A DNA stretch of 64,000 nucleotides. Origin: Tetradesmus obliquus (Eukaryota; Chlorophyta; Chlorophyceae; Sphaeropleales; Scenedesmaceae). The translations under genes and the position numbers were made by a program. Below are positions 3,001-63,930 of this stretch, piece by piece. How positions within the stretch are numbered: position 1 is the stretch's first letter; each line of letters starts with the position of its first letter. The DNA is taken from NCBI GenBank assembly GCA_030272155.1, contig CP126206.1, positions 2,046,001 through 2,110,000 on the forward strand. The letters run 5' to 3'. A model generated the notes under the pieces. That model ran no database searches and was not told the DNA's origin. It saw nothing but the letters and a program-made list of their open reading frames with translations.

Positions 3001-4672
3001 ACGCAATGCCAGAAATGGTATACAAACTGCCGTGCCCTGCCGCTCACATCTGGAGCCATCTGCCGCACCGCCACAAAACATTTTTGCTCACTATGCCGGT
3101 ATACCCGTGTGCAAGCGACTGAGCAGCGCCCAGGATCTTGCAGCCAACCCACGCATTGTTATACAGACTGAATAACATAACAAGCAGCAAAGGCCCAGGC
3201 TCTAAGATCGCTTTTTGGTGACAGAGCTACAAGCCCATCTCCTTTTGCTGCAAAGTGCACGGACCACACACCACAGCCCGCCACGCCAGATCAGAAAAAG
3301 ATGCCAGAAAGCGGCGGAAAAGTCAAAAGGCACACAGGAGGTCAGCAAGCATGCCGGATCATAGGCAGACGCATGCTGTGCTGGCTCCTGCAGCCTCATT
3401 TTAAACACAATGCACGGACAGAAAGTCAAAAGTCAAAGCAAAGCACAGCAATCCTGCAAGCGCTACCCTGCAGGAGAGCCGGTACAGTCAATTTCACACT
3501 TCGCTGCCCTGATAAGCAACCGCCAAGCACAGCATTTTTCCTGCTTATCGATTGTCAGAAGTGGCCTGCTGACAATCAATGAAACATGTATTGATACAAC
3601 AGCAGGATCAGGTGTGCGCGGCAGTAACCTATCAAGGATGCTCAGAACCCTGCAGAAGAAAAACAATGACGGAAGCCCTGCAGCCAACACACTGCTAGTG
3701 TACATGCAGTTGCAGCATACAATCCATCTACCCGCTACTGACGGCGGGAAGATGCCATGCAGTGCAACTGCTTCATAACATATTGTAGATACAAATATGT
3801 ATAGATAGGCACGCCACAACTCTGAAGCTCTCACAGGCCGCTAAGTTAACTCCAGACAAGGATGTAGTCGTGCCTCTACTCATGCTCCTTCAGCGCCTCT
3901 AGTTAGCACGACAATGCTGCAGTTTCCTCAACTGCCTATCCAGGCCTTGATTCAAGGCCAGACACTCTCTCCTCAGTATGCTCAACGGTGGCCTCTGCAC
4001 AACCAACCAACAGCGCAGATTATGCAGACAAAGCAGAACACACAACAGCAAGCACGCATTGCATTGCTCCGTGCAGTACGTTCAGCATACACATGCCTGT
4101 GTATCGTGTGCACACGCAACTCGCAGACTCTGGCGGGGTACATGCAAGACAGTCGGTGCTCAGCAACCCTGAACTGAACACATTTAGCATTGCTCACCCT
4201 CCATCACAGTCACTCACTCTTTCACTCTGCGCTGCGCAAGCCCCGTATGAATACTGCCACCATGTGCGTCAACTGCAGTGTGCCGCTCCACCCATCAGCA
4301 AGCAAGTGACTCCGCACCATGCCACACACATAAATAAAACCTGCTGATTCCCGCTCAAAGCTCTCACATCGCATCCCTGCACAGCTGTCAGCAACTGCGT
4401 ATCACTCAAGAACCCGCTCTTGCAAAGGCACTGCACCTTTAGATCACGCCTCAAAGCCCCACAAGTCAAACTCCAGTCAAACTTCAGTCAAACTCCCTGC
4501 ACCTTCTGCTTCAGCAGGCATCACCAGCCAGACAGCCGAGGGTGTGCTGCTGCTTCAGCAGTTGTCAGCGGTCGCAAAGCCGAGGTGCACTACCGCAAAG
4601 TTTGTGTCGAAGAGGCCGCACAGCACCCCATCAGCCTCTGCCCCTGCACCCGCTGTATCAGGGATCGCTGCT
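1..4672. other. Left flank without a recognisable gene
   Basis: This 4.7-kb stretch has short open frames on both strands, the longest 170 codons at 2069-2581 on the plus strand. Their translations are low in complexity (Gln, Ala, His, Thr and Cys rich) and match no family I know. I found no convincing acceptor-exon-donor chains. A partial copy of the last exon of the neighbouring F-box gene lies at its right end. It may contain the 3' UTR of that gene; otherwise I see nothing supportable. Confidence 0.5.
4553..4621 (-). repeat. Partial copy of the last F-box exon beyond the stop
   Basis: About 69 bp here repeat, with a few changes, the 3' part of the last exon starting at 4671, including its stop region, at an offset of about 118 bp. 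It lies downstream of the stop codon, so it would fall in the 3' UTR or beyond. Confidence 0.75.
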
Positions 4673-4813
4673 TCAGCAGTTGTCAGCGGTCACAAAGCCG
4701 AGGTGTGCTGCCGCAAACTTTGTGGCGAAGAGGCCGCGCCTGTTGTGGCTGGCCTTGCCCCTCAGCGCAACCACCACGTGGCTCACAGGGGCGCCCTTGG
4801 GCAGCACCATCCT

Positions 4814-4866
<53 letters not shown>

Positions 4867-6749
4867 GCAGCCGTCAGCAGGTTGTGTAAAAAGTTACATC
4901 GCATTAAGCCAGCCCGTCAACACGATCACAAAAGGAACAGCCTCTGATCTGCCGGGCATGAGCATCCCTGCAGGCTCGCATGTTTCCTGCAAGCCGCACG
5001 CCCGTTCCCTGCAAGCCGCGACGTTTCCTGCAAGCAGCCCACCTGCAGCTGTAGCGCATCCACTCCCCGGGCGGCGGCTGCAGCGGCGCCTTTGCAAGCA
5101 GGCTGCTGCTGCTGAGGCCCAGGGCCTTGAGGTTTGCTGCTGCTGTCTGCTCAACCCCTGCTGACCCAGCTGGAGGATGGCCGAAAGGCAATGTCATGCG
5201 GGGAAGGGCTGCGAGAGGGATGGCTGCGGCGGCTGCTGCTGCCACGTCTGCTGCTGACAGCAGTGTGGTTGCCACCTGGTACTCTCCGCCAGAGATGGCC
5301 CTGCAAGTTGCGGTTGCAGGCGGTACAACCCGGTATGGAACAGCAGCAATTTTGATAATGAACGGTGGCAAGGCGTTTTGTAGGTGTTGCAGCATTGAAT
5401 TGCAATGCTGCTGAATTGCAATGCTGCTGACAGTGTGGAGCATGAAAGCGACCCAAACAAGAGCTCGACCGGTTCTCACGACATGGCGCCATGCGCCTCC
5501 AGTTTAGGTTACCTGATAAAGTTCATACTTATGAACACACAGCAGATTATGTGACGGCCCAGCAAGATTCTAGCAGCTTCAGCACAAAAGCGGAGAACAA
5601 AGCAGTATTCATTCACTACGCATTGTCGGGTGCAACTGGGATGTCTCACCCTCCAGCCACGTAGACGGACAGCTCCAGAGTAAGCCCAGATGCCAGCAGC
5701 TGCTGAGACAGCTCGCTTGGCAGACCTGCTGCAGCCAGCGCTGCAGACAGGTCGCACACCTGCAGCAGCAGCAGCAGCAGCGGCAGCAGCAGAATGAAGA
5801 TTCAACAGCAGTTGTGTAGATGTTGCTAGGTGTATGTTACTGTCAGTGCACAGGAAAGGAAATGGAGTTCCAGTTGTACACAATGCCGCACCTGTGCCAC
5901 CTCGGACCAGCCAGGGAAGCTGAGCATGCCTCCTGGCCCCAATGCCAGGCACCCCACATTAAACGGCTTGGCGGCACTGAAACATATCAACACACGTGGT
6001 GTATCAATGCTCTTGTGTACAACGCCAAATATGGTGTTAAATGAAACACCCTCGCACCTGTGCCACCTCAGACCAGCCAGGGAAGCTTAGCATGCCCCCT
6101 GGGCCCACTGCCAGGCAGCCCACACTGAACGGCTTGGCGGCCCCGCACTCTGCTGGCAGGGGTGACAGCTCGGGATGGAAATCAAAGGGGTGTGCCCAGG
6201 TCATACCGCGCGCGTTGTGTGTGGCCTCCTGCAGCAGCAGCAGCAGCAGTAAGTAAGTAAGGCGACAGCTTAGGGAGATTGGCTTGCACTGGGGGCGCCG
6301 GTACGTCATACTGATGTGGTGAACGGCAACTTGCACGTCAAAGCCAGTTGCATTTACTCACGCCTGCTGCCGTGGCGCAGACTGCTTAGGAACCAGTCAA
6401 CTGCAAATCACCTGCAGTTCAACTACAAGTCAAGCCCACTCACCCAGGCCAGCTGCCGTGGCGCCCCTGCAGCCTTAACCGCATTCTCCCTCTCCAGGAA
6501 GGAGCTGTTGCGCAGCAGGTTGCATTGTTACAGGCAGCGGAACAGCCCTAAACACCACATACACTCACCCAGGCCTGCTGCCGCGGCGCGCCAGGCAACT
6601 TGACTGCATTCTCCCTCTCCAGAAAAGAGCTGTTGCGCAGCAGGTTGCTCTGGTACAGGCAGCGGAACAGCCTTGCAGGAGACAGCCACGGCTGGCCCGG
6701 CAGGGGGCCCTGACTGAACAGCTCCAGCACCTGCTTGTGCATGCGCCTG

Positions 6750-6797
<48 letters not shown>

Positions 6798-7234
6798 TGA
6801 GTGGCATCAGCCCTGGCTGGCCCGGCAGTGGGCCCTGGCTGAACAGCTCAAGCACCTGCTTGTGCATGCGCCTGCAGCGGCAGCAGCAGCAGTGAGTGGC
6901 AGCAGCAGCATAAGTGGCAGCAGCAGCAGTAAGCTGTCGAACTACAGCTCAACCGAGAGCATTGCCAAGCACTTGCTCCACAGCTCCACAGTGACATGTC
7001 CTTGCACTGGCTACTGAATAGCCTACATGCAACACGCGCAGTGCTACTTCATGCGCTACAGCCAAGGTTCGAACATAACAATGACATTAGCTATAACATA
7101 TTAGTAACATGTTATTTACTTGTTAGTAACGCACCTCCTCCACACCTCCTTGCACTGGCTGGCCTGGCGCCAGTGGCTGGACACCAGTGCAGCTGCACAC
7201 AGCAGCTCCTGGACCTCCAGGAAGGACAGCACCT

Positions 7235-7674: not shown

Positions 7675-9530
7675 GGCTGCTGCAGTACTGGGGTTGCGCT
7701 GCTGTTGCTGCTTTTGCTACTGCTCAAGGGCAACACAGGTCAGGCTGAGCTGAAGCTGCGTCGTGTTTTGCACTTTTTAGCCCCCTAACCACGCCGGTAA
7801 TGTTGACCTGCGTTTGCAGGAACCAATGCAGGCGGTGCACGGGCAGAAGCAGCAGTGTGCAGGCTGGGTGAGTAGGAGAGCTGACGCTGCAGCCAGCACA
7901 GGAACGGTCGCAGACCAATTGCTCCGCGAGCCAGTCAAATAACTGTATGTCTGGATGTAATTCTGTAGTTGCGGTGCGCTGGGCCAAAGCGTGCGAGATG
8001 GCAAGCAATTGACCCGCGTCCTGTCAGGGTGGTGGGCTAGGGCCAAGACAGAAAATGCAGAACTGAAAACGCATCCGCTGCGTTTAAAAAGTATCTTGTA
8101 CTATTGTAGGTGCCTGAAACAGGGTTCGCTGCGCTACAGCTGCTCAATTATGAAGCACTGATGTGGTAGTGGTGGGTGGATTGCAAGCGGCCACCCTAAA
8201 CTGACTTGCCCACCCTAGACGCTAATCTGACAGTAAGTTACGGTTTCAGAGGGACTGCGTACCGGTGATGTTGGCAGCTCTTGCAAGTTGTGCTCGTTCT
8301 GCAGCAGACGTTCCCAGTTCCCCTGCAACCACGTCTCAAAAATCAAGACAAGATGATACTGTTCAATCGTGGGTGCAAGCAAGTATTGTGCAGCCGCACG
8401 CCTGCGACGCTGTGCGTGACAAGTTTGCCATGACACTGTTATTGACCATTGTTGAGGCCAGGAGCCTGTAACGGCTGCATTCAGGGCTGTTGCGGACGTA
8501 GGTGCACAGCGGATGTCGCTTACGATGTGTGATTGCCTGCCAGCGGTCGTCCTGTCAACGGAGCAGCTGAAATTTGGGTGCACAGTGTGGTGCCACTGCA
8601 ACATCCTGGGGCCTGAGCACCAGCCTGAACCTGTGCGAGCATCATGCCTGCTAGCAAATGGCGTGCTCGCCAATTTTCCCAGCCATTATCTTCAATCTGA
8701 CATGTTTGCTGTATTGAAGCTGCGAGCTTGGGGCAGCTGCAGGGACTGTCAACACCGCGGTGCATTGCAATGCCTGCCGGGCAGGCTGCTGCAGATGACA
8801 CCTAGATACTCACTGAACATCCACCACCACACACATCATGAAGAATTGCAGGAAAGACGATACATTCATGAGTTGATTGCCAGCTAAAGATAACCGTCAT
8901 TCTCTGTTACAGAGCGTTGCCATGGCACTCAACAATTGGATTTAAAGAAAGCCAAGCAGAAGCCATGCCATCACTCTCAAGGCAGCAGTGATGCAGCAGA
9001 GCCTCGCAGCATGCCATGTTTGACCAGCTGCAGGAATGCTTGAAGCACTGTTCCCAAACCTGACACTACTGTGCATGCTGCTGTCGCCACTACCGCTGCA
9101 GGAGCAGCAGCCGGCTCATAGCAAAGCATCACACTGTGCCTTGCGTTTCTCATAGACCTGAGCAGCGCTGCGCAGCAGGTGCAATGCTGCAGGCAGCACA
9201 CGCACACCAAAGAACAGCCGCCACAGGACCACCAAGACTACAACAACGCCTCCCTCCATGCACAGCAGCAGCCGCTGCAACGCTGCTCAAGCTGCCGCTG
9301 CAGGCAAACCGCCTGCTGCAGCAGCTGCAGCGCTTACAGCATCGCGGCGTCTGCTGCAGCTGCCCTGCATAATTGCACGGTCAGCTTGCTGCAGTCGCAA
9401 CAGCCGCCAAAACCACTCCTGCAGCTGCAGGTGCGGTTTCCTCCACCAAACCGCTCCACCCAGGAAGTTGAAGAGACCCTGGCTGTTACAACATGTGTTA
9501 TAACAGCTCAGAGGCTGATCGGCTTCCTGC
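7675..9530. other. Intergenic stretch between F-box gene and PETC
   Basis: It should hold the promoter of the F-box gene (minus strand, right of 7674) and the 3' UTR of PETC. A TGTAA on the minus strand at 9486-9490, about 40 bp after the PETC stop, matches the polyadenylation signal used by Chlamydomonas-type algae. The open frame at 8215-8673 (minus, 152 codons) resembles no family I know. Confidence 0.45.
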
Positions 9531-12303
9531 TTAGTTCCACCAGGGCTTCTCACCGGTACGGAAGTCGGTCTCGGACCTGCAGAAAAAAGGATAAAGATTG
9601 CAGTAGAGAGGCAACAACTCAGCAGAGCACAGGTCAACAGAACCTGAAGCACACGCAGAGAAGCTCAAGTGGTTGCTACAAAAGTAAACTTCAGGCATCT
9701 GCCGTCACGCTGCATGATGGCTGCAGCTGCAGCCACCATCTATGTGGGCCGCACAGCACTACCCTGATCACGACAGCTGTTGTGCTGTGCAGTGCCTATT
9801 GACGCTTGGGCATGCACATCATGTCCCCCCTCCCTCGTGACATTGATTGATGCTGCAAAGCGTGTGTATGACAGACGCAGCAAAATCCTGCTAGCAGTGG
9901 CTGGCACTCACCATGTGCTGAACAGCACGGTGTCGTCCTCGGCGACGGTGATGTGTGCCAGGGCCAGGGACTGCACAGCAGTTGAATTGCAGGCACATGT
10001 CATGTCAGTGCAAAAGGAGGTGAAGTAATAAAAGACGTTTGAATTTGAGCTGATATGGGCGCACGGAACGAAACCAGCTGGACAAGTAGACGGCGATGGC
10101 GAGGAGTCCAGTAGCACCCATACAAACCATACAGGACACTTGTTCACAGCAGCTGCAGAAGCAGTCCCAAGAGCATAATGATACAACTATGATCGTCCAA
10201 AGGGGCCACTGTCTCCTAAATGCACCACTGTCTCCAGCAGCCTATCGCTGCAAGCAAACGAATTTGCTTGTCAACAAATGCGGAGCTGCTGCCACTCACC
10301 AGGGGTGCGGGGCCGCGGATCTTCTTGCCAGTGCTGTCGTACTGGGAGCCGTGGCATGGGCACTTGAACTTGTTCTCGGCCTGCAGATTAGGCAGGTAAC
10401 AATATTGAGGCAATGGAGAGGCAATGGAGAGCAGAAGCATCAGCAGAGTTGCTGGACTTCAGGCTGGGGTGGTTCCAACCTGGCAGCAGTACTGCCTGCA
10501 CATGCTACTGCACATCGGACGCAGGCAACGCACAGCAACCGCAATATCCGAAATAAAGAAACATCTCGCTAGCACAATGCTGGTTCGCGAGAGCTGCAGC
10601 AAAAGAGCAGAGGCCGGCCACTCACCCCGACCCAGGGGACGACGCAACCCAGGTGGGTGCACACGGCGTTGAGGCCGTAGCTCTCGATGCCGCCATCCTG
10701 GGTGACGATCAGGTAGGTGGGGTCACCCTGCGAACGAAGGAGACGGGCAGGAGACGGCAAAGAGCAGCATGGGTCAGTCGCGCAGGTCGTGGCTCGCACC
10801 GCCCTGAAATGCGCCGATCTCGCAGCCAATGCCCCATAAAATATGAAAAGTAACAAACAAAAACGTAAGCTACGATCGCCGAGCCCAATGCGAGTACAGC
10901 TGGCGAGGTCGGAAGTCAACCCCTGTCACTGCCTCACATGGGCTCCCATGAGCTGCCCTGCTGCAGCACACTCCTCTCCCTCCAAAACACCTCTCCCTAT
11001 CACTCCCTGTCTTACATCTTCTGTCCTGCCCTACTGCTCAAGTCCACACCACCATCAACATCAGCTGCTGCCACTTCCCATCATCCACTACCAAGTACAA
11101 CTACACAACACCACCGCAGCAGGGTTCGAACCACCCACCTTGAGGCCCTGGGTCAGAGACCTGTCGCCCTTCTGGTGGGTTGCCAGCCACGCGTTGGTCT
11201 TCACGTCGTTGCCGAGCGCATCCTTTGCGGCCTGGCCGCCAGTGCCGCCGCCAGCGCCCTTGGGCACGAAGAACAGCAGGTAGGGCCCGCCCAGGCCTGC
11301 CACTGGCAGGGAGATGCCGCCTGCAGGAAACAGGGAAGAAACAGCAGCAAAGAATGCCAAATTTTGTGTCAGAAGCCAGCAATGCCAGGAAATTGGCTGC
11401 CCCATGCAGATGGAGCTGCAGGCAGTGGTGCATGTACTGCTGCTGCTGCTTTGGGGTCGTGAATGTCCCGGCCAAGGCAACTGCATGATGGTATGGTCCC
11501 TTGCTGCAGAAGCTGTAGAACTGCAGCAGCTGCAAATACGTGTTTAGGTGAATGCTGGCTGTCAGCTGCCATCATTCTGTCATCTGGCAGGGCTGGTCTG
11601 TGGCAGCAATGTGTGCCTGGTACGTCTGCTTGCGCTGCTTGCTGACACTTCAAGCAACAAAGCCAGCTACTGACCCAGGAGCAGCAGGTTCATGATGTTG
11701 CGCTTGTTCATGTCAGGCCTGCAGGACAGACAGGGTGAACACAAAGCGTGGGTCAGGTTACTGCCTGTGACTGCAAGTAGTACTGGCATTGAGCTCCTGC
11801 CTGCTGTGGCTGCTCCATCCAGTGCTGCATCTAGCTGCATGGAGCAATACGAGCAGGCATGCTGCAGCTGCTGCTGTCCAGGGTGCTTCTGCATCCATTG
11901 GCATTGTACCAGCGGAGCAAGCAGCCAGCCAGCAGCACATGCAGGGCCCAGATGGAGACACCACTGGCACCCTGCTGCTGAAACAACCGCAGCTGATCGA
12001 TCACAGCAGCGATCGATGCAGCCAACGGCATATATCTCTGGCTATTTGGCGCAAGCCGGCTGGCACGCTGCCAATGGATGCGTGATTTAGCACCACGGCG
12101 AGCAGCAGCGATTTAGGAGAGCTGCTCCCCCTGTCTGCACCACAGCTGAGCTGCACGCTACTGATTGATACGGCCATGGTTTCGCTATCTACGTACACTT
12201 CAGCGGCAGCTGCTGCAGCGCGGGGAGCCACCACACGGCGCTGCACCCTCTGGGGGGCCACGGGGGCCTTGAAAGCCGCGCGGTTGCCTAGTGCGAGCGC
12301 CAT
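9531..12303 (-). CDS. PETC: Chloroplast Rieske iron-sulfur protein of cytochrome b6f
   Basis: Nuclear gene for the Rieske 2Fe-2S subunit, which passes electrons from plastoquinol to cytochrome f at the thylakoid membrane. Seven exons, in transcript order: 12303-12197, 11718-11675, 11320-11139, 10727-10626, 10380-10300, 9970-9912, 9576-9531; 621 bp, 206 aa, the usual length for algal PETC precursors. Residues 1-35 form an Ala/Arg/Val-rich transit peptide. [15 protein letters not shown] starts the membrane anchor (about 45-68), followed by a Gly-rich hinge ([12 protein letters not shown]). Cluster ligands sit in CTHLGC (C134, H136) and CPCHGS (C152, H155); C139 and C154 give the conserved disulfide. 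The protein ends [12 protein letters not shown], close to the Chlamydomonas end. The intron before exon 7 splits the Trp codon (TG|G). It is the only gene here in which I found no partial exon copies. Confidence 0.97.
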
Positions 12304-26678: not shown

Positions 26679-26709
<31 letters not shown>

Positions 26710-28543: not shown

Positions 28544-28592
<49 letters not shown>

Positions 28593-29117
28593 CCAGGAAG
28601 CACTGGCAGCACTATTTGCCAGCTGCGGCTTTGTGTGTGAGTCAATGCTGGTGCATGCCAGCACTTTCAAACTCATACGGCACTTTACTGCTGCTGCTGC
28701 TGCTGCTGCTTTTCAGGAAGCACTAGCAGCACTGTTTGCCAGCTGCGGCTTTGTGTGTGAGTCAATGCTGGTGCATGCCAGAACTGTTGAAAACAGGAAG
28801 TCAGGTGTGAAGATGCCCCGCCGCTGGATCCAGGCAATCTTCAGATATGCTCCCGGTGAAGTTCCCACCAGCCAGGCCGGGAACTCTGACTGGGAAGTAT
28901 CTGCTGCAGGGGGCGGGAGCCATGATCTACAGCAGCAGTTGGGAGCTGAGCAGCAGCAGCAGCAGAAGCGGCAGAGGGTCGTGGCTGCTGCAGCAGCAGC
29001 AGCAGCAGATCTAGGGGAGGTGCAGTGTGCTGGCAGATCCTGGCATCTGCCAGCTGGCATCGGCAGCAGCAGCAGCAGCTGTGCACATCAGCTTGCAGCT
29101 GGCCTTGACAGACTTCT

Positions 29118-46556: not shown

Positions 46557-46621
<65 letters not shown>

Positions 46622-51168: not shown

Positions 51169-51209
<41 letters not shown>

Positions 51210-51979: not shown

Positions 51980-52012
<33 letters not shown>

Positions 52013-52272
52013 AATTCAATAGCTGAATGCAGGCCAGCAAAGCACTGGCTAGGGCAATGAAGGGGTGGGATGATACTGCTGCCTGCTGCCTGCCTGAAAT
52101 ACTGCCTCACCTGCTGTTTGCTGCTGCCGCTGCTTGCTGCCTTTCTTTCTGTATCTTGTTTACTGCAGGCCTGCGAAGCACTGGCGGGGGCCATGAAGGA
52201 GTGGGAGCGGCGGCCCTGTGCCGCATTGGTTGCTGCTGCTGATTCAACCCCTGTGCAACAACTTCTGACTGG

Positions 52273-52307
<35 letters not shown>

Positions 52308-53575
52308 AGGCCTGCGAAGCACTGGCTAGGGCCATGAAGGAGTGGGAGCGGCGGCCAGGAGAGAGGACCGGCTTTTCTGACAGCCCTGGGGACTGCCTGG
52401 CCTTCAAGTACCTGCGTGACGTGAGTGGCAGGGTTTGAGCAGGTTTTAGGAACATGTGTGCAGGGTTTAGGCATTGATGGGTCAGATCTAGATGCATTAA
52501 GAGGTGACAAGGGAGAGGACAGGCTTCTCTGACAGCCCCGGCGACTGCCTGGCCTTCAAGTACCTGCGCGATGAGTGGCAGGGTTGAATCTCAATTGTGT
52601 TCAAACAGCGTTCAGGCACACATGTGCAGGGTTTCAGGGTGTCCAGTTCAGGCATGTGCAGCGCTTCAATTGATTGCCTGTTATACACTCCTGGTGTACT
52701 GCCTGTACAATTCATGCTTGCACTGCCTTTGTGCCCCACCCTTGCCTGACATACAGTATTTCTGGTCTGTACTGCCTGCAGGTCATCGAGTGCCGCTTTG
52801 CTTAGGCTGCTCCGCATATGTACTGCCAGACATGACTTATTTTGTTGTACTGCCTGTGGCTTGTGCTGCCTGCAGGCTGTTGAGTGCCGCTTTGCTGAGG
52901 AGGCAGCGCAGAAGCTGGCAATAGCATTCCAGGTGAGGGCTTGGGGCTCACACTGTGTGATCTCAGGGGTCAGGTTTAGGCTGAGCAGCATGTAGCAGAG
53001 CAGCTTTTAGCAAAGCAGCTGGCAGCAGAGCAGCTGGCGGTGGCATTCTAGGTATGTGGGTGGGCTCAGTCTTTGGGGACCAAGGGCTTGGGTTTCTGTC
53101 ATGGTTTGATGACAGTCACGTGTTGATGTCAGGGCTCAGGTTTGGGCTAAGCAGCTGGCAGCAGAGAAGCTGGCAGCGGAGCAGCTGGCAGTGGCCTTCC
53201 AGGTGGGAAGGCGGGGCTCAGGTCTACTGTGCTTTGGCCAAGCAGCATGAAGCAGAGCAGCTGCCAGCAGAGCAGCATGTAGCAGAGAAGCTTGTATAAC
53301 AGCAGCTGGCAGCAGAGAAGCTGGCTGTGGCCTTCCAGGTGGGAAGGCGGGCTTGGGTCTTAGGTCTTATTGTGCTTATGAAATTTCAACCTGCAGCAGT
53401 GTGCAGCTGCTTGTGACAGCATCATTGACCAGGCGTTGGGCTATGCGCATAACATGCGGCAGTTGCAACAGTGGGTTCCGCAGTGGCTGTTTGACATCCA
53501 CCTGTTGACTCCTTTACTTTACGCTTATTGCAACATGACAAAGAGCTAAGGCATAACATTGGTTGCTCATGTTGG

Positions 53576-53606
<31 letters not shown>

Positions 53607-54574
53607 AGGCGTCAGACACGGAGGGGGCAGCAGCGCGGCTGAGCGAGTGGCGGGAGAACGAGCTGGCGGCAGCGGAGGCAGCCACCACATCATTTGCCAG
53701 CAAGGCGGTGCTGCAGGTGCTGCGGCTGCAGCAGGACGAGCTCGGGTTCAGGTGAGCGTTCCCAAATTGTTGGTTCTTTGGGGCTTGCCATTCTGTTGTG
53801 ATGTTCTATTACAGCTGCATCAGGAAGAGCTGCGATGTGATTTTCACGTCTCAGTTGAGGGTTGTGATCGGAAAACGAGCTGGTGGCAGCGGAGGCAGCT
53901 ACAACATCATTTGCTAGCAAGGCAGTGCTGCAGGTGCTGCGGCTGCAGCAAGATGAGCTGGGCTTCAGGTGAGGCAGTTGAACAGGCAGTTTGGTCGATT
54001 AGTTGCTCGATCTTACTGCAAAAGGGAAAAGTTCCGTGTGACTTTACCTATTGGGTTTAGGGTTGTGATCGAGAAATAAGCTTGCGGCAGCTGAGGCAGC
54101 CACAACATCGTTTGCCAGCAAAGCGGTGCTGCAGGTGCTGCGGCTGCAGCAGGATGAGCTGGGCTTCAGGTAAGGGGTGGTCACAGTGTTGTTTCTTGTT
54201 CGGCTTGCATTTTGGGTCTGAAAAGGCAAGTATAGCTGCAGCAGGAAGCGCTGTATTGTGTTTTCTTTTTAGTTTTGGGGAGAACGAGCTGGCAGCAGCG
54301 GAGGCAGCCACGACATCATTTGCCAGCAAGGCGGTGCTGCAGGTGCTGCGGCTGCAGCAGGACGAGCTTGGGTTCAGGTGAGGCAGGTGGTTTATGGAAT
54401 GGAAGGGGTCACAATGTCGTGCGACCTGAAGGATCTGCAGTCCAGAGTCTAGGGTCTAGGGCTTGGTGGCCTGTCATCAGCTATGGGGCACTACTCACTG
54501 CTGCTGCTGCTGCTGCCGCCGCCGCTGCTGCTGCTTCTGCTGCTGCTGCTGCTGCTTCTGCTGCTGTTGCTGCC

Positions 54575-54606
<32 letters not shown>

Positions 54607-54700
54607 TGCTGCTGCGAGGCCGATGCCGCAGGTCAGGCACCTGCCGCAGCTCAGTGTGGAAAGCTACGCACTGCTACTCCACTGCCACTCACTACTACTC

Positions 54701-54739
<39 letters not shown>

Positions 54740-56735
54740 CCGCTGCCCCAGGTCAGCCACCTGCCGCAGCTCAGTGTGGAAGAGCTGCAAGGCGCACCCA
54801 CCACCAGTCAGGAAGGAGCCTTTGGCACGTTCAACATGCCGGTGAGTTTTTTTGTTATGTTATTTGTTATTTGGGCATTGACAGCCACTTGTAACACAGC
54901 AAGTCAGACCTGAGTGTGCTGCATGTAGCACCCACCACAAGCCAAGAGGGGGCCTTTGGCACGTTCAACATGCCGGTGAGTTATCTTGTTGATGTTGTTT
55001 GTTAGTTGGGCATTGACAGCCACTTGTAACACAGCAAGTCACAGACCTGAGTGTGCTGCAAGGCACCACAAGCCAAGAGGGCGCCTTTGGCACGTTCAAC
55101 ATGCCGGTGAGTACTGTTACAGTCACACATCTCATTCTTATGATAGTAGCAACCATTTGTAACCTAACATGACAGACTCGAGCATGCTGCAAGACGGGCC
55201 CACCACCAGCCAAGAGGGGGCATTCGGCACATTCAACATGCCGGTGAGTACCCCTGTCATGTTGATTTGTTATAACAACCATCTGTTACACAACATCACA
55301 CTGACTTGAGTGCACTGCAAGTAGCACCTACGGTCAGTCAGCAAGGGGCGTGCTGGCCAACACACATCTGCCTCATATTTATTCTTTCAAGTCTGGTTTT
55401 GATAGAGGATAGTTACATGTGGATCCTGGCACCATCTTGATTGGTATGAGCCGCAACAGGCCGCAACACACTGCACACCAAATTTGGTTCTGACTTGAAG
55501 CTTGGCTTTATATATGAATCTGCTGCAGGCCACCAGCCGTGATCAGAAGTGGGTGGCGCTGCCTCGATGGACGGCGCCGTCTTTGGCCTGCCGGCCAACT
55601 TACATCTGCCTGTTACTGAATATTGCAAACCGGATCTTGGTTTGTCACTTGATCTGCTGCAGGCCACCAGCCGTGATCAGAAGTGGGTGGCGCAATGGAA
55701 GGCGCTGTCACTGGCGCGCTGATCAACTTATTTTCAAATTTCTCCACGTGATTCATACTATCTCTTGTGATGTTGATGTTGATTGCGTTGCAGGCCACCA
55801 GCCGTGATCAGAAGTGGGTGGCGCTGCCGCAGTGGAAGGCGCTGTCACTGGCGCGGCACCCAGTGGCCATCCCTCTCACAAACTGCGCAGCAGAGCCCTC
55901 AGTGCTGGCAGCCAGCAGAGCCAAGGTGACTGACGCTGGGGTGACAGGGTTCAGGAAGGGGGTTTGCAGGGTTCAGTGCATGCCTCAGGCAGTTTTGCAT
56001 GCCGTGTGTCAGCACCCAGTGGCCATCCCCCTGACAAACTGTGCGGCGGAGCCCTCAGTGCTGGCAGCAAGCAGAGCAAAGGTGACTGAGGCTTGGGGTT
56101 ACTTCTAAAGATTACTATGGGTTTAGGGACAGGTTTTGCAGATTTGCCATGTACGCGTGGGGTTGTTGCATGCTGTCGGCACCCAGCGGCCATCCCGCTC
56201 ACAAACTGTGCGGCGGAGCCGTCAGTGCTGGCGGCCAGCAGAGCCAAGGTGACTGACAGTGAAATGAACCATTGTTCTGACTTCTCTTGGGGTTTACGGG
56301 TTCGTAATATGTGTGATGCGAGCTTCAGGCAGTTCTGCATGTTGTCAGCACCCAGTGGCCATCCCGCTCACAACTGTGCGGCAGAGCCGTCAGTGCTGGC
56401 AGCCAGCAGAGCAAAGGTGACTGATGCTTGGGGTTACTTCTAAATGTTACTATGGGTTTAGGGACAGGTTTTGCAGATTTGCGATGTACGCGTGGGGTTG
56501 TTGCATGCGGCACCCAGTGGCCATCCCCCTCACAAACTGCGCGGCAGAGCCGTCAGTGCTGGCTGCCAGCAGAGCAAAGGTGATTGACACTGGGGTTGAT
56601 AGAATTCATAAAATATTCTGCAGAGATGTGTTGCAAGCTTTGGGCAGTTTTGCACGCTGTCAGGACCAGTATCCACATGCAACTGTTCAGGGACTGCTGC
56701 TGCTCATCACGATGTGAACTTATCGCTGCTGCTGC

Positions 56736-56768
<33 letters not shown>

Positions 56769-56853
56769 CATTCAGACCGAGGAGGAGAAGAAGCGGCTCA
56801 CCGGCGCAGGCCTGCTGGTGGTGGACACCATCGTGCCGTGTTGTGGCTAAACC

Positions 56854-56923
<70 letters not shown>

Positions 56924-57008
56924 AAACAGACTGAGGAGGAGAAAAAGCGGTCTCACAGGAGCAGGCCTGCTGGTGGTGGACACCATCGTGCCATGCCATG
57001 GCTAAACC

Positions 57009-57066
<58 letters not shown>

Positions 57067-57196
57067 TTCAGACCGAGGAGGAGAAGAAGCGGCTCACTGG
57101 CGCAGGCCTGCTGGTGGTGGACACCATCGTGCCATGCCATGGCTAAACCACTGCTGCTGCTGCTGCTGCTGTGTTGCTGCTGCTGCTGTGCTGCTG

Positions 57197-57244
<48 letters not shown>

Positions 57245-57504
57245 ATCAGACCGAGGAGGAGAAGAAGCGGCTCACCGGCGCAGGCCTGCTGGTGGTGGAC
57301 ACCATCGTGCCAGGCCCCCTGGACCCCAATGCCTTTTATTTGGTGAAGCAGCACAACGAGCAGCGGCTAGCATTGGCAGAGGGTGCTAAGCTTGCAGGAG
57401 AGGGCGGTGCTGCTGCTGTGGCGCCACTCGCGGCCGTGCTGTTCCTGTGCCGGCCGCCAAACAGAGAGAGCATGATCACATCGTCGGAGCTGCTGCAGCT
57501 GTGA
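50177..57504 (+). CDS. RAF1: Rubisco accumulation factor 1, chloroplastic
   Basis: Rubisco assembly chaperone that holds large-subunit dimers in the plastid stroma before the small subunit joins. Eight exons: 50177-50792, 51214-51347, 52310-52420, 52876-52932, 53609-53751, 54739-54841, 55794-55925, 57250-57504; 1551 bp, 516 aa, phases agree. The N-terminus is a Ser/Arg/His transit peptide followed by a Gly/Pro-rich stretch to about residue 120, longer than in Arabidopsis RAF1. The helical domain starts at PWHSLAKLLPVLYAKGFD (157-174) with VAELTGVNPVDQNLWVVA, then YHFRFLPAERRAAAAQYI, GDCLAFKYLRD and VLRLQQDELGFR. The C-terminal beta domain has KWVALPQWKALSLA, VAIPLTN, GLLVVDTIVPG and AVLFLCRPPNRESM. 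All but the first exon have partial copies in the introns or beyond the stop, and a CTG run precedes exons 2, 3, 5, 6 and 8. Confidence 0.92.
51057..51207 (+). repeat. (CTGCTGCCG)n / (CTG)n tract in RAF1 intron 1
   Basis: About a dozen nine-base CTGCTGCCG units pass into a pure CTG run that ends at the CAG acceptor of exon 2 (51214). The composite 9-bp period differs from the simple CTG runs elsewhere. Confidence 0.93.
51860..52575 (+). repeat. Copies around RAF1 exon 3
   Basis: Three upstream units (near 51867, 52031 and 52168) repeat acceptor and exon start (SEALARAMKEWE). One downstream unit (52505-52575) repeats the exon end (GFSDSPGDCLAFKYLRD). The true exon is 52310-52420. The CTG tracts at 51961-52012 and 52276-52303 belong to the duplicated unit. 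A decayed copy of the exon 2 end lies at about 51440-51480. Confidence 0.88.
52750..53345 (+). repeat. Copies around RAF1 exon 4
   Basis: An acceptor-side copy (VIECRFA) begins at 52782. After the exon, 53000-53050, about 53150-53205 and about 53300-53343 repeat the exon end (KLAVAFQ) with a GTATGT or GTGGGA donor. Confidence 0.8.
53870..54380 (+). repeat. Three copies of RAF1 exon 5 3' part with donor
   Basis: Copies of ENELAAAEAATTSFASKAV...LQQDELGFR end at about 53968, 54171 and 54379, each followed by GTGAGG or GTAAGG. Period about 205-215 bp. The last copy is almost identical to the true exon end at 53751, so which copy is spliced is not certain; the product would be the same there. Confidence 0.88.
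54498..54660 (+). repeat. CTG/CCG/TTC tract and copy of RAF1 exon 6 start
   Basis: A long imperfect CTG run with CCG and TTC interruptions (54498-54616) leads to a copy of the exon start (VRHLPQLSVE). A second CTG run (54704-54735) leads to the true exon at 54739. Confidence 0.88.
54915..55245 (+). repeat. Three copies of RAF1 exon 6 end with donor
   Basis: Copies encoding APTTSQEGAFGTFNMP end at about 54974, 55107 and 55241, each followed by GTGAGT. Period about 133 bp. Confidence 0.92.
55525..56580 (+). repeat. Copies around RAF1 exon 7
   Basis: Upstream, 55529 and 55660 begin copies of the exon start (ATSRDQKWVA) with acceptor. Downstream, four copies of the exon end (HPVAIPLTNCAAEPSVLAAS) end near 56080, 56248, 56416 and 56579, each with GTGACT or GTGATT. 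The downstream spacing is about 165 bp. Confidence 0.92.
56720..57249 (+). repeat. Three copies of CTG run plus RAF1 exon 8 start
   Basis: Each unit is a CTG run of 14-23 repeats (56727-56768, 56855-56923, 57010-57063, and 57151-57243 before the true exon), a CAG acceptor and TEEEKKR...GLLVVDTIVP. Run length varies between units while the exon part stays nearly constant. Confidence 0.95.
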
Positions 57505-57589
57505 GGCGGCCTGGTTTCCTGCAGGCATGGCGCAGTTTCCTGCAAGGTTGACGGTTTCTTGGAAGTTGCAAGTGTTTGTCGCCAGCTGT

Positions 57590-57975
57590 TGCAATGCAGC
57601 GGCTGGCGCTGGTAGAGGGTGCTAAGGAGGAGAGGGCGGTGCTGCTGCTGTGGTGCCGCTAGCGGCCGTGCTGTTCCTGTGCCGGCCGCCAAACAGAGAG
57701 AGCACGATCACCTCTTCAGAGCTGCTGCAGCTGTGAGGCGGCCTGGTTTCCTGCAAGCACGGCGCAGTTTCCTGCAAGGTTGTCGGTTTCTTGGAAGTTG
57801 CAAGTGTTTGTCGCCAGCTGTTGCAATGCAGCGGCTGGTAGAGGGTGCTAACCAGGAGAGGGCGATGCTGCTGCTGTGGTGCCGCTAGCGGCTGTGCTGT
57901 TCCTGTGCCGGCCGCCAAACAGGGAGAGCACGATCACATCGTCTGAGCTGCTGCAGCTGTGAGGCGGCGGCGGGC
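57590..57975 (+). repeat. Two copies of RAF1 coding end beyond the stop
   Basis: Sequence from about QRLALAEGAK to the stop recurs at about 57595-57737 and 57828-57962, followed each time by the same GTTTCCTGCAAG-rich 3' sequence. Period about 230 bp. Confidence 0.9.
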
Positions 57976-59270
57976 TGTGTTTCCTGCAAGCGTGGCGCGG
58001 TTTCCTGCAAGCGGGGTGGCGGCGGCATTGGTTTCCTGCAAGGCTGGAATTGGTCCTGCAAGCTGCGAATGTTTCCTGCAAGCTGTTGCAATGCAGCATC
58101 CTTGTGCCTTCTGTTGTACTTGTGACGGTGCCTCTTTGACCTTGAGACGTGGCCAGTAAGCAGCTGCATCTGATGCATCACACAGCTCCGTGGCATCCTG
58201 GCATGTTCCGTGATGCGCTATGGATAGCTCTGTGCAGGTGTTGAGGTGCTGAGGTGTGCGTGGTGTGCGTGGTCGCCTTGCTGAGCTGGCTGAGGCAGCA
58301 GGTGGAGCCAGCAACCGCCAGGCTGTCATCAACCAGGGAACCTCGTTGGTTTAGTGCTCAGGAAGGTTTTGACGCTGCTGAGCTGGCTGAGGCAGCAGGA
58401 GCAGCTAGCAGCCGCTGCGCCGCTTTCCTGCAAGCGCATGTAGCATGATGTGGCACAGTTGCAGCATTCGTGGTGTACGTATGGAGCGTGTGGATGGATG
58501 TGCATGTGATGCCGTGGTGTTGTGTGCACTGCGCATCTGATGTGTTGTTTGACTGCTTGTTTGATCCACGCCAGCACTGGGCTAGTGGCTTTCACAGTTA
58601 AAGCCTATTGCAGCAGTGTTATGTACCATCTCTGGCTGCCAGTGCACTGCTCCTGCGGTTGATTGCTCTGGTTGGTTGCTTTGCTTGCCTGATGCAGTAA
58701 GTGCGGCTGAAGCCACAAGCGTGTACTACGTGGTACGCTGGTGCGCTCTGCCCCAGTTCGTGAGGTCTTTGGCACCTTGCATGCTGTAGTTGCGGATGAA
58801 ACAAGCAACTGCCGCTGCTGCCACGCACTTGCAAACTGCCTGATGCGGTTTGCAACTTGGCATAATTTGCATTTTGCAAGTGTGTATGCTGCAACTGTTG
58901 ACACGAGGTCTGGCGTGTGCATGTGCAGGAGTGTGAGTACGCACTATGTTGCATTATGCTCTGCAAACTGTGTTTATGCATACATGCCTATGCAAGCTTT
59001 TTACAGTGCCGGCCTGAGCCTCAGGCTGCTGCGCCGCTGACTACCAGCGCCAGTGCTGGCCTCCTGTACCTGTTGGATCATCATGTAACTGTTCAAGAGC
59101 AATACTACTACCTACCGTTTCTTGCGTGTATGATGTGCTGCACGCCTGGCAGCTTGTACTGGTACTGTTGCACTAGCAACTCTGAATCGAGTTTCACAGA
59201 TGATGGCAGCGGCCCGCGTTTATGTCATCGTCAAACGGAACTTGAGGTTCCAAAACTGGTGAATAAGATG

Positions 59271-60894: not shown

Positions 60895-61241
60895 GTGCCG
60901 GTTGTGTTTGGCTGTGAGGCGAGTGAGAGTGGCGAGATCTTCAAGCAGAAGCCGGATGGGATCCTGGGCATGGGCAACAGCCCTGGCGCCTTCCACAGCC
61001 AGGTGCGTGAATGACACTTTAAGCAACAATTTCAACATGTTACGTAATGTTGGAGTTGCAGTTATCAGTTGCTGATCACCACAAGCATGTGGCTGCGCCT
61101 GTGAAGCGCGTGAACAGCATGAGCAGCAGTAGGGTCCGGAGATTGTCATGGCTGCTAGGTGAATCCTTGTGTTGCACGTCTGCAACAGCTTGATACCCTG
61201 GATAGCTCAATGAATGGAATGCAATGACATCCATGCGCTGC

Positions 61242-61303
<62 letters not shown>

Positions 61304-63930
61304 AGCTGGCTGCTGCAGGGGCCATCCCCCACATGTTCAGCCTGTGCTTCGGCTTCCCTACGGGCGGAGCGCTGCTGCTGGGTGAGCAGAAGTCCCATTG
61401 CACAAATTACGTACATGTTACTATGATGTTGTAATGTAGCTGGTGTTGAGAAGACATAGTGCTTCGGCTTCCCACAGGCGGCGCGCTGCTGCTGGGTGAG
61501 GCAACGCAACCAGCAGCAGCTCTCTTCTTTGTTTTGGTGCTTTGTTCTATCATAATCTTTTGTCCTTGGCAGCAAGTGGCAGCACTTGTTTGAGTTTGTG
61601 TGCTCCGCATACGTGCTTGTTTGCACACCCCCACATCGTTGCTCTCTCCCTACAGGTGATGCGCTAGTACCGGGCAACCCTACTTATTCATGGACCCCAC
61701 TGTCAGCATCGGGTTGGTCTGAACAGCAGGCATTTTCACCTCACTCTTTGACTCTTTTCGTCCTGCTCACTCTTTTCCACTCCCCTGCAGGCGATGCGCC
61801 AGTGGCAGGCAACCCAACTTATTCATGGACCCCACTGTCAGCATCAGGCTGGGCGCAGCCGCAAGCTCTGCTGAACTTTTGCATCACATGTTACGTCTTT
61901 GCAGGCGATGCGCCAGTGCCAGGCAACCCCACCTTCTCCTGGACCCCACTGTCAGCATCGGGCTGGGCTGAACTGCAAGCTTTGTTGACTTCGCTCCTTG
62001 ACGTGCCTTTTGATTCGCGTCTGTCTCCCTTTCTTCCCTGCAGGTGATGCGCCAGTGCCAGGCAACCCCAGTTACTCATGGACGCCGCTGTCGGCATCGG
62101 GCTGGGCTGAGCAGCAAACCCTGTTTGAAGTCATCCTTTGACTTGCCTGTTGTTTTGCCTCTGTGATGCCATCCTGCAGGCGATGCGCCAGTGCCAGGCA
62201 ACCCAACTTATTCATGGACCCCACTGTCAGCATCAGGCTGGGTTCATCCACAAGCCATGTTGCAGTCGCTCGTTGACTTTTTTCCACACACTCTTTTCGA
62301 TGCGCCAGTGCCGGGCAACCCCAATATCTCCTGGACCCCACTGTCAGCATTTGGCTGGGCCCACCCACAAGCCCTGCTGAACTTTTGCTTACTTGTTTTG
62401 TTTGCAGGCGATGTGCCAGTACCGGGCAACCCTACTTATTCATGGACCCCACTGTCAGCATCAGGCTGGTCTGAACAGCAGGCATGGTCACCTCACTCTT
62501 TGACTCTTTTCGTCCTGCTCACTCTTTTCCACTCCCCTACAGGCGATGCGCCAGTGCCGGGCAACCCCAGTTACTCATGGACGCCGCTGTCGGCATCCGG
62601 CTGGGGGGACTTCTTCGCTGTGGCAGTGGACCACATCAAGTTTGGGGACGAGCGCCTGGGCGTGCAACAGTCCATGTTCAGCAAGGGATACAGGACGGTG
62701 CTCGACTCAGGCACCACGTTCATCTATCTGATAACCCCGGCATACAGGGCCTTCGCAGCAGCAGCAAAGGCGGCAGCCAAGGCGGCTGGCCTGCAGACAA
62801 CCAGCGACGGCTATGGGGACATCTGCGTGAGTGCATATCATGCTATATTATAGTATGATTATTTTCAAATTTATATTGTAGATGTATTTATAAGAAAAAT
62901 AGAGGCCTTTTTGGCAGCAGCCAAGGCGGCAGTTTAGGCGGCCGGCCTGCAGACCACCAGCGACGGCTACGGAGACATCTGCGTGAGTTTGGTACCGCTA
63001 CTGTTGTTCAATTCGATTACTTTGAATGTCGTCCGATAACACCACATTTCTTCTCCTGCCCTACAACAGCTGCAGCTTCAGCACGCCTTTTTGACGATCG
63101 TGGCCGTCATGCTAGCACTGCATTGCTGCATCTCCTACTGCCCGTGCCATGTTTTTGCCGCCGCTGCTGCTTCACACACAGTGGACGGGCGCCCAGGCGG
63201 ATTTTGCAGGGCTTGAAGAAGCCTTTCTCAATGCAGAGCTGCCGTTGTAGCACACTTCCTGATACAATCATATAAGTCATACTTGCTGTAACGTGTTGCA
63301 CCTGCCGCTGCCCCTGCCTCCGCTGCCGTCGCTCTTGCTTGTCAAACAGTGGACCGGCGCCCAGGCTGATTTCGCAGGCCTCGAAAAGGCCTTTCGAAAT
63401 GCTCAGCTGCTGTTTGTGGGAGGAGGCCTTTCACAATCATAACGATCATAACAGTTATGTCTGCCGTCACGTTCGCGCTGACTTTGCTGCATCTCGCACT
63501 GCTGCTGCCACTGCTGCTGCTACTCTTTCATACAGTGGACCGGCGCCCAGGCTGATTTTGCAGGCCTCGAAAAAGCCTTCCCAAATGCAGAACTGCAGTT
63601 TGTGGGAGGAGGCCTCCTACAATCATAACAATCATAACAACATGTGTGCCGTCACGCTCGCGCTGACTTTGCTGCATCTCGCACTGCTGCTGCCGCTGCT
63701 GCTGCTATTCCTTCATACAGTGGACGGGTGCCCAGGCCGATTTTGCAGGCCTTGACAAAGCCTTCCCTAATGCTGAGCTGCAGTTTGTGGGCGGAGGCCG
63801 GCTGGTGCTGCCTGCGCACCGCTACCTGTTCCAGCTGTCAAGAAAGGGCAGCTACTGCTTGGCTGTGTTTGACAACGGCATGTCTGGGAGCCTGATCGGG
63901 GGAGTGGCAACACGTAACGTGCTTGTCAAG
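59566..63930 (+). CDS. Pepsin-like aspartic protease (A1 family), 3' end outside the window
   Basis: Exons: 59566-59765, 59896-60103, 60709-61002, 61306-61381, 62543-62826, 63721-63930 and more to the right; 424 codons so far, phases agree. Residues 1-31 form a signal peptide (VALLVLLSSPCAA). The two catalytic motifs are IVDTGST (D91) and VLDSGTT (D314). Other family marks are YFYAVLPLGTPP, CFDCRHCG, YAEQSSSEG, VVFGCE, DGILGMGN and SLIGGVATRNVL. It resembles plant nepenthesin-like A1B enzymes in its N-terminal Cys pairs but is shorter there. A poly-Ser run (60850-60894, AGC codons) is inserted in the N-lobe after DVFTFPG. The enzyme is predicted to be secreted or vacuolar. Two introns contain copied exon parts: seven units before 62543 and three before 63721. 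Confidence 0.92.
60567..60615 (+). repeat. (CAG)16 in protease intron 2
   Basis: Unlike most intronic runs, this one shows CAG on the sense strand. A (CTG)8 run (60685-60708) stands at the acceptor itself. Confidence 0.9.
61243..61299 (+). repeat. (CTG)19 before protease exon 4
   Basis: Run ends directly before TTGCAG, the acceptor of the exon at 61306. A copy of this exon's end with donor (GALLLG, GTGAGG) follows at about 61480-61500. Confidence 0.93.
61650..62542 (+). repeat. Seven copies of acceptor plus protease exon 5 start
   Basis: Units start near 61657, 61791, 61907, 62044, 62181, 62299 and 62409 before the true exon at 62543; steps are 110-138 bp. Each repeats GDAPVPGNPTYSWTPLSASGW-coding sequence; most keep a CAG acceptor, while the unit at 62299 has lost it. 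Steps fall into two classes (110-117 and 134-138), as if two unit types had expanded together. Confidence 0.95.
62900..63720 (+). repeat. Copies of exon 5 end and exon 6 start
   Basis: About 62915-62982 repeats the exon 5 end (AAGLQTTSDGYGDIC) with a GTGAGT donor. Units near 63181, 63351 and 63537 repeat the acceptor and start of exon 6 (WTGAQADFAGLDKAFPNAEL); the true exon begins at 63721. Spacing is 170-186 bp. Confidence 0.92.

What the first reader, a model, noticed from the sequence alone, without database searches (positions are those of the whole stretch)
4553..63720. Partial exon copies flank exons in eight of nine genes
In every gene but PETC, units of about 100-230 bp that span an exon-intron border are tandemly repeated. 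Upstream units carry acceptor plus exon start, downstream units carry exon end plus donor, and last exons have copies past the stop. About 25 separate arrays occur in 64 kb. Tandem duplication of a segment containing AG|GT is a known route to new introns, but such density in unrelated genes looks like a genome-wide, ongoing process of intron birth and growth.
Basis: partly seen in the sequence, partly recalled or inferred. Interest (0 to 1): 0.88.

Follow-up and report, generated by a model that had tools for sequence, protein, structure and literature searches.

The report
Exon-edge copies lengthen algal introns
In a pond alga, many genes carry strings of partial copies of their own exon edges in the neighbouring introns; they mostly lengthen old introns rather than create new ones, and in some genes the copied stretches keep the amino-acid text although they do not look usable as exons.

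Summary
The window, from a Tetradesmus obliquus-like genome (RAF1 99% identical), holds 37 local-duplication clusters. Collapsed to one unit each, 34 of 37 overlap a predicted exon; random placement within genes gives 20.8. Elsewhere it is patchy: 10 of 17 random non-satellite 10-kb loci have clusters, at a third of the window's density and with weak exon excess (21 of 32, 18.3 expected, P .22); 16 of 20 kinesin loci have none.

General intron birth is not supported: 2 of 371 introns have the tandem-duplication signature, both ambiguous, and some array-bearing kinesin introns are shared with array-free paralogs. Existing introns grow.

Unexpected: copies stay similar over coding sequence and in several cases become unrelated at the splice site or stop codon. 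Among copies alone, window variable sites fall 40/42/92 on codon positions 1/2/3, mainly in RAF1 and an aspartyl protease, although a second splice site is no commoner than chance. I favour tandem duplication tolerated by splicing, plus exchange between copies and the working exon; the direct exchange test is only suggestive. Many other arrays look neutral.

The parts
4549..4737 (-). F-box-like gene (Pfam just under cut-off): last exon end with stop codon, one copy downstream
   Evidence: 91.5% over 71 bp
5887..6141 (-). same gene: exon end + donor, one downstream copy; homology stops at the donor
6437..6923 (-). same gene: exon-start copy upstream and exon-end copy downstream of one exon
19007..19259 (+). 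exon end + donor copy
20789..20950 (+). acceptor + exon-start copy
21004..21562 (+). MORN-repeat gene (weak Pfam matches): exon end + donor copies
21698..22124 (+). MORN gene: three upstream acceptor + exon-start copies
22209..22381 (+). MORN gene: exon end + donor copy (copy's GT reads GC)
22876..23391 (+). MORN gene: acceptor + exon-start copies
23450..23733 (+). tandem copies near the 3' end of the MORN gene, type uncertain
24671..24837 (+). 5' part of the METTL6-like gene (assignment inferred): one copy, type uncertain
25661..26103 (+). METTL6-like gene: exon end + donor, two downstream copies
26204..26447 (+). METTL6-like gene: acceptor + exon-start copy
26450..26686 (+). METTL6-like gene: exon end + donor copy
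26795..26977 (+). METTL6-like gene: exon-start copy upstream
27327..28481 (+). METTL6-like gene: about nine downstream copies of exon end + donor, 122-bp units, young, neutral-looking
28483..28785 (+). METTL6-like gene: upstream acceptor + exon-start copy
32102..32613 (+). starch-binding-like gene (name from my reading): three acceptor + exon-start copies
32606..33047 (+). same gene: exon end + donor, two copies
33643..33897 (+). exon end + donor copy
34108..34373 (+). SAP-domain gene: acceptor + exon-start copy
34464..34679 (+). SAP-domain gene: last exon end, 98.6% over 72 bp, homology ends at the stop codon (TAA vs TGA)
38744..39635 (-). RING gene: several copies of exon start and end
39738..40627 (-). 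RING gene: eight upstream acceptor + exon-start copies, 104-bp units, about 95% identical
44789..44995 (+). exon end + donor copy
46394..46856 (+). acceptor + exon-start copies
51854..52356 (+). RAF1: acceptor + exon-start copies (ACEALARAMKEWER exon)
52356..52585 (+). RAF1: exon end copy (GERTGF..KYLRD), copy's donor damaged
52763..52910 (+). RAF1: acceptor + exon-start copy
53652..54389 (+). RAF1: four copies of exon end + donor; among the three non-exon copies variable sites 0/1/14 at codon positions 1/2/3
54582..54781 (+). RAF1: acceptor + exon-start copy
54784..55349 (+). RAF1: exon end + donor, three downstream copies
55515..55855 (+). RAF1: acceptor + exon-start copies
55853..56660 (+). 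RAF1: exon end + donor, four downstream copies
56725..57316 (+). RAF1: acceptor + exon start, three upstream copies
57360..58097 (+). RAF1: last exon, 3' end copied
61647..62605 (+). aspartyl-protease (TAXi-type) gene: seven upstream acceptor + exon-start copies
62748..62988 (+). protease gene: exon end + donor copy
63103..63799 (+). protease gene: three upstream acceptor + exon-start copies
9417..11971 (-). PETC gene, the exception: no array

Best explanation
Segments of roughly 95-240 bp overlapping an exon edge are duplicated in tandem. The duplicates survive because splicing can still use the outermost site (first donor or last acceptor), so the message is unchanged and the pre-existing intron grows (duplication and polarity shown; use of the outermost site inferred, in line with a public predicted RAF1 that has one copy of each exon). 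Later the non-coding part of each unit drifts apart. In several RAF1 and protease arrays the coding part does not: it varies mostly at third codon positions. Since these copies have a second splice site no more often than chance, I infer that their coding parts keep exchanging sequence with the working exon (gene conversion or unequal crossing-over), so that amino-acid changes are purged whenever they enter the working position. The copies would then behave as silent cassettes of the exon.
For: Exon overlap beyond random placement in the window and in the pooled set. Polarity 57 of 58 and 51 of 51. Coding-biased similarity: 28-31% of window 30-mers at +10 to +50 into exons have a local copy, 12% at -10 and 3-8% at -30 to -90 in introns. 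Copy-to-copy differences in five RAF1 and protease arrays: synonymous .24-.37, non-synonymous .01-.07, intron .24-.30. Codon positions among copies without the working exon: window 40/42/92, P 3e-7. Homology stopping at a splice donor or stop codon in the cases displayed. No complementary splice site beyond chance. No RAF1 paralog seen: all 14 matches of a 151-residue RAF1 query lie in this locus. Public predicted T. obliquus RAF1 has one copy of each exon.
Against: Direct evidence of exchange is weak. Incompatible site pairs are 45 of 97 against 9 expected in a simple model, but a conservative model gives a mean fraction of .35 and a 95% bound of .53, so the observed .46 is not significant; the rise with distance has P .007 with locus L023.15 without it. 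The codon bias is carried by few genes; METTL6 exon 4, MORN, starch-binding, L018 and kinesin L039 arrays show none, and two other RAF1 arrays do not fit (55793.16/.08/.19; 57446.05/.07/.08). In random loci copy-only sites are 21/41/44, not a synonymous pattern. In one displayed pair (L039 2470) the intron part is still similar. The synonymous divergence is higher than homogenisation would normally leave. No transcripts were seen.
Confidence: 0.48

Rival explanations
1. Neutral debris: border-spanning duplications are tolerated because splicing ignores them, and copies then decay. No exchange, no function.
For: Many arrays look neutral: kinesin copies 5/5/4 by codon position, METTL6 exon 4 pS .03 pN .06, L018 pS .10 pN .17. 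The working exon's own synonymous drift explains part of the exon-to-copy bias. In random loci the exon excess is not significant by the stricter count (21 of 32, 18.3 expected). In one search, leaving out the two rows of one RAF1 array, decoy-private changes are mixed.
Against: Copy-to-copy comparisons in five RAF1 and protease arrays, where the working exon is not involved, give pN far below pS. Homology ends at coding ends while exon parts are 96-99% identical in displayed cases. The window and pooled exon excess is not predicted.
Confidence: 0.27
2. The copies are translated: alternative, mutually exclusive or extended exons under direct purifying selection.
For: Amino-acid-level constraint in RAF1 and protease arrays. 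Splice sites kept: GT in 54 of 58, AG in 49 of 51 copies. In the 53.6-kb RAF1 array one copy (54273-54377) has both sites.
Against: Acceptor near the inner edge of exon-end copies: 19 of 58, random 19.5; donor near the inner edge of exon-start copies: 0 of 51, random 6.9. Distance to the nearest copy is a multiple of three in 13 of 52. One RAF1 copy at 55.9 kb has a frameshift and two lack an adjacent AG, yet they vary almost only at third positions. Public predicted RAF1 has single exons.
Confidence: 0.12
3. Copies derive from diverged alleles: unequal recombination between very different haplotypes or hybridising strains placed allelic exon pieces in tandem recently, so their differences are ordinary allelic (mostly synonymous) differences.
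For: Fits low pN with high pS and unalignable introns. The closest public T. obliquus RAF1 differs from the window's exons by a few residues, so strains are not identical.
Against: Needs several alleles differing by up to a third of synonymous sites. No second RAF1 locus was found in this genome.
Confidence: 0.08
4. One reading: ongoing intron birth by tandem duplication of AG|GT-containing exon segments.
For: Mechanism known (PMC3443670, passages read); tandem duplications abundant here. L019 holds a 132-bp predicted intron whose flanks match at 94% across both splice sites, a possible nascent intron.
Against: Only 2 of 371 introns match, both ambiguous: in L019 the first copy has its own stop so no splicing is needed, and in L023 a copy was probably mis-predicted as exon. 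Some array-bearing kinesin introns are shared with array-free paralogs.
Confidence: 0.05

Closest known systems
Intron gain by tandem genomic duplication (reviewed in PMC3443670, passages read; potato RdRp case PMC4974935, title and abstract start seen)
   Same: Tandem duplication inside a gene; splice sites included in the unit; message spared by splicing
   Different: There the duplicated segment is exonic and becomes a new intron; here units overlap an existing exon-intron border and lengthen an existing intron
Tandem exon duplication and mutually exclusive exons (Dscam type, recalled; PMC6071210 and PMC4835542 seen in search listings only)
   Same: Tandem copies of coding sequence with conserved splice sites and, in some arrays, third-position variation
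   Different: Copies are mostly partial exons (7 of 140 whole) with one splice site
Decoy exons in retained introns (mammalian OGT type, recalled)
   Same: Non-productive exon-like segments inside introns
   Different: Here many per gene, tandem, copied from the adjacent exon; no retention data
Silent cassettes maintained by gene conversion (chicken Ig V pseudogenes, recalled)
   Same: Non-expressed copies that keep a coding text because they exchange with an expressed one
   Different: No diversification role is evident: amino-acid text is conserved, not diversified; exchange not proven here
Introners (PMC9860276, listing and abstract start seen)
   Same: Fast change of intron content
   Different: In the window no sequence is shared between arrays of different genes apart from simple repeats (matches of 60 bp or more listed)

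Membership tests
Intron gain by tandem genomic duplication | Sequence across the donor repeats the sequence across the acceptor of the same intron | tested here: not met
   2 of 371 introns on uncollapsed models at 66% or more over 50 bp, both ambiguous. The earlier 0 of 306 used collapsed models, blind to recent births. Not met as a general feature; one possible case (L019)
Intron gain by tandem genomic duplication | Intron is new relative to homologs | tested here: inconclusive
   Kinesin arrays at profile positions 177, 221, 264 lie at intron positions of array-free paralogs (3, 8, 4 cases within 5 residues); position 139 has one; five of nine positions have none. No other species' DNA
Mutually exclusive or tandem duplicated exons | Each copy has both splice sites | tested here: not met
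   Complementary site 19 of 58 (random 19.5) and 0 of 51 (random 6.9)
Mutually exclusive or tandem duplicated exons | Copies used in transcripts | not testable with these tools
   No RNA data; a public predicted T. obliquus RAF1 has one copy of each exon
Introners | Same sequence family in introns of many genes | tested here: not met
   In the window's self-comparison the listed matches between distant places are CAG-type simple repeats; a 151-residue RAF1 query matches only the RAF1 locus. Not tested genome-wide for other arrays
Concerted evolution by gene conversion | Mosaic sharing of variants between copies beyond recurrent mutation | tested here: inconclusive
   45 of 97 pairs incompatible; simple model 9 expected, conservative model mean .35 of pairs, 95% .53
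Concerted evolution by gene conversion | Coding part more similar than adjacent non-coding part among copies themselves | tested here: met
   Decoy-decoy identity .84 exon vs .65 intron over 50 borders, background .52 (that call had no low-complexity filter and its copies were found by exon similarity, which favours this outcome); with a filter, pS .15, pN .06, intron .23 over 32 rows
Decoy exons of retained introns | Copy promotes intron retention | not tested
   needs RNA

The most novel reading that the evidence does not exclude
Introns of this alga serve as reservoirs of silent exon-edge cassettes: partial-exon copies that cannot be exons themselves exchange sequence with the working exon often enough to be kept amino-acid-clean for long periods, while hoarding synonymous variation and lengthening the intron. 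That would be a form of concerted evolution between an exon and its own intron.
Probability: 0.35. Interest if true: 0.82.

Novelty: new variant of a known kind. Interest (0 to 1): 0.65.

Why it matters
Intron lengthening is usually credited to transposons (general knowledge). Here collapsing the arrays removes 11,078 of 64,000 window bases, in units whose splice sites are nearly as good as the real ones: 44 of 58 copied donors and 37 of 51 copied acceptors reach the level met by 50 and 40 of their working counterparts. This poses a clean splice-site-choice problem. If the coding parts do exchange with the exon, introns would hold a store of exon variants, and tests of selection or gene models in such genomes would be misled by constrained non-exons. 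It also warns that duplicated splice borders need not mean new introns. A published table gives T. obliquus a mean intron of 462 bp against 230-302 bp in the four other algae listed (PMC5966456, passages read).

Tried and rejected
Pfam on raw frames found few domains because exons are short, so I trained a small gene finder. A first version barred phase-0 introns by an ordering bug, corrected. Permutation tests: one search used aligned length instead of unit length, which made the null too easy; searches used unit length but counted any exon overlap as observed while the expectation counted single-edge placements only, which overstates the excess; repairs this and is the one I rely on. The first intron-birth test ran on collapsed sequences, where a recent birth would have been removed; one search repeats it on uncollapsed models and inspects the two hits. 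After this check I lowered the favoured explanation from .50 to .48 and raised intron birth from .03 to .05.

Survivorship (only exon parts stay alignable) as the whole cause of the exon bias: judged insufficient, since the excess holds for recent and fully alignable arrays in the pooled set; 5 of the 34 fully alignable ones overlap no exon. Functional alternative exons: argued against by splice-site and frame tests. RNA- or DNA-level function of the copied sequence: disfavoured for RAF1 and protease arrays because third positions vary most. Paralogous donor: none found for RAF1. CAG-repeat content correlates with array density over 38 loci (rho .45, P .005), not pursued. One search compared copies with the collapsed exon sequence, which may carry a copy's bases, and includes low-complexity rows; I rely. 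Decoy-private changes: over 28 arrays 117 synonymous, 141 non-synonymous, 4 stop, 72 synonymous expected; one RAF1 array enters twice, and rows share copies, so rows are not all independent. Some copies remain ambiguous as copy or exon (for example 25777-25860 and 54273-54377).

Ten literature searches: among the titles and abstract starts listed (several searches had far more hits than were listed) I saw no report of exon-edge arrays in green algae. In three Scenedesmus or T. obliquus genome papers a term search found no use of 'intron' and no relevant use of tandem, repeat or exon. The library is open-access only.

Full report
What was examined. The window is bases 2,046,001-2,110,000 of contig C16 of a 104.66-Mb, 17-contig genome. 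RAF1 assembled from its exons is 99% identical to a Tetradesmus obliquus protein and 71% to one of Scenedesmus sp. PABB004, so this is T. obliquus or a very close relative. I compared the window with 20 scattered 10-kb loci (three, L013, L021 and L028, are satellite arrays and were dropped) and with 20 kinesin motor loci chosen from a Pfam search (L039 was picked after its copies had been seen).

The arrays. Tandem Repeats Finder and self-BLAST find them directly. With one set of settings the window has 37 clusters, the 17 random loci 33 (32 kept), the kinesin loci 10. The smallest copy offset per cluster is 114-157 bp in the middle half and 95-237 in the middle 80%. Printed alignments show what they are: exon end plus donor repeated downstream, acceptor plus exon start repeated upstream, last-exon ends repeated past the stop.

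Are they at exon edges more than chance? I collapsed every cluster to one unit, predicted exons on the collapsed sequence, and placed segments of the same unit length at random within genes. Part of the pattern is plain geometry: introns have a median of 240 bp after collapse, little more than a unit, so most random segments meet an exon. Beyond that: window 34 of 37 overlap an exon (20.8 expected, P below 1/20,000), random loci 21 of 32 (18.3, P .22), kinesins 10 of 10 (6.4, P .011; without L039 5 of 5, 3.4, P .15), pooled 65 of 79 (45.7). Among single-edge and non-coding segments only: 25 of 28 (12.2), 19 of 30 (13.4, P .026), 8 of 8 (4.5, P .011), pooled 52 of 66 (30.2). Pooled recent arrays 19 of 21 (12.7, P .003); pooled end-to-end alignable units 29 of 34 (20.9, P .002) (all). 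The excess is thus clear in the window, modest elsewhere, and I have no full explanation for it.

How widespread? 10 of 17 random loci have at least one cluster; 16 of 20 kinesin loci have none while L039 has five and L036 three. The window is about three times denser than the random sample. The process is found in many parts of the genome, but the window is a rich place and genes differ strongly.

Intron birth. In birth by tandem duplication the sequence across the donor equals the sequence across the acceptor. On uncollapsed gene models 2 of 371 introns show this. L019: the end of a last exon, stop included, is copied past the stop; both copies contain CAG|GTGG, so a 132-bp intron could be spliced without changing the protein, but the first copy's own stop makes splicing unnecessary. 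L023: 68% match, probably a copy mis-predicted as exon. Kinesin arrays at profile positions 177, 221 and 264 sit at intron positions that array-free paralogs also have (3, 8 and 4 cases; 139 has one; five of nine positions have none). So mainly existing introns grow, and L019 is a candidate for a new one. A published table agrees that T. obliquus introns are long (462 bp mean, PMC5966456).

Coding text is kept. The share of 30-mers with a local copy drops at the border: window .28-.31 at 10-50 bases inside exons.21 at the border.12 at 10 bases into introns.03-.08 from 20 bases on. Copy-to-copy identity is .84 in exon parts and .65 in intron parts, background .52 (50 borders; copies were found by exon similarity and low complexity was not filtered). 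In individual arrays homology runs through the exon end plus some six bases of donor consensus and stops (L039 near 2950), or stops at a stop codon that reads TAA in one copy and TGA in the other (34464 vs 34608); in L039 near 2470 the intron part is still alignable.

Amino-acid constraint in some arrays. Between copies, leaving out the working exon, synonymous, non-synonymous and intron differences are .33/.01/.30 (RAF1 53.75 kb).31/.04/.24 (54.84 kb).24/.01/.24 (55.9 kb).29/.06/.27 (protease 62.5 kb).37/.07/.29 (63.7 kb) and .17/.02/.24 (METTL6 exon 1, one pair). Others do not show it: RAF1 55.8 kb acceptor .16/.08/.19 and 57.4 kb .05/.07/.08, METTL6 exon 4 .03/.06/.15, kinesin L039 acceptor .02/.03/.11, L018 acceptor .10/.17/.30. 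Counted by site, copies alone vary at codon positions 1/2/3 as 40/42/92 in the window, 21/41/44 in random loci, 5/5/4 in kinesins. RAF1 and the protease carry most of the window signal.

Yet copies do not look like exons. Of 140 copies, 58 are exon ends, 51 exon starts, 24 internal and 7 whole. Their own splice sites are kept (GT 54 of 58; AG 49 of 51). A complementary site at the inner edge is at chance for exon-end copies (19 of 58 vs 19.5) and below chance for exon-start copies (0 of 51 vs 6.9; composition may contribute). Distances to the nearest copy are multiples of three in 13 of 52. A public predicted RAF1 of T. obliquus has each exon once.

Mechanism. The simplest process that keeps an amino-acid text in a piece that is not an exon is exchange with the exon. 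Mosaic patterns fit (45 of 97 site pairs incompatible, 9 expected in a simple model), and all 14 matches of a RAF1 query lie at this locus. However a harsher model of recurrent mutation reaches the observed level, and the distance effect rests largely on one locus. I therefore hold the exchange step at about even odds, and the duplication-and-tolerance step and the intron-growth reading as better supported.

Limits. P values treat clusters or sites as independent.

Noticed in passing
L019 minus strand, 1487-1708: Last exon of a gene that reads like an acetyl-CoA synthetase (name from my reading): its end, stop included, is tandemly copied with CAG|GTGG in both copies, making a 132-bp candidate nascent intron.
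   Followed up: partly
L013, L021, L028 (C2:4500001-4510000, C7:2500001-2510000, C14:1500001-1510000): Tandem satellites of lower GC with periods near 312 and 333 bp on three contigs; candidate centromeric or heterochromatic repeat (my guess).
   Followed up: no
window 34714-34824: A stretch of about 110 bases matches its own reverse complement at 96%: a long near-perfect palindrome beside the SAP-domain gene.
   Followed up: no
P0017: A RAF1 reading frame from the eukprot source, 93% identical over 43% of the query, runs on after ..AFKYLRD into VSGV and stops, as if the intron after that exon were retained; in the window this exon has the copy at 52508-52585.
   Followed up: partly
G000:C16:3397051-3398503: A Rieske-domain gene shows overlapping partial matches to the same profile region, some with stops inside, likely another set of exon copies.
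   Followed up: no
window, many places (e.g. 29118-29193, 51056-51208): Long CAG/CTG-type runs are common; their density correlates with array density over 38 loci (rho .45).
   Followed up: partly
window 21004-21562: MORN-repeat exons make it hard to tell real protein repeats from exon-edge copies in this gene.
   Followed up: no
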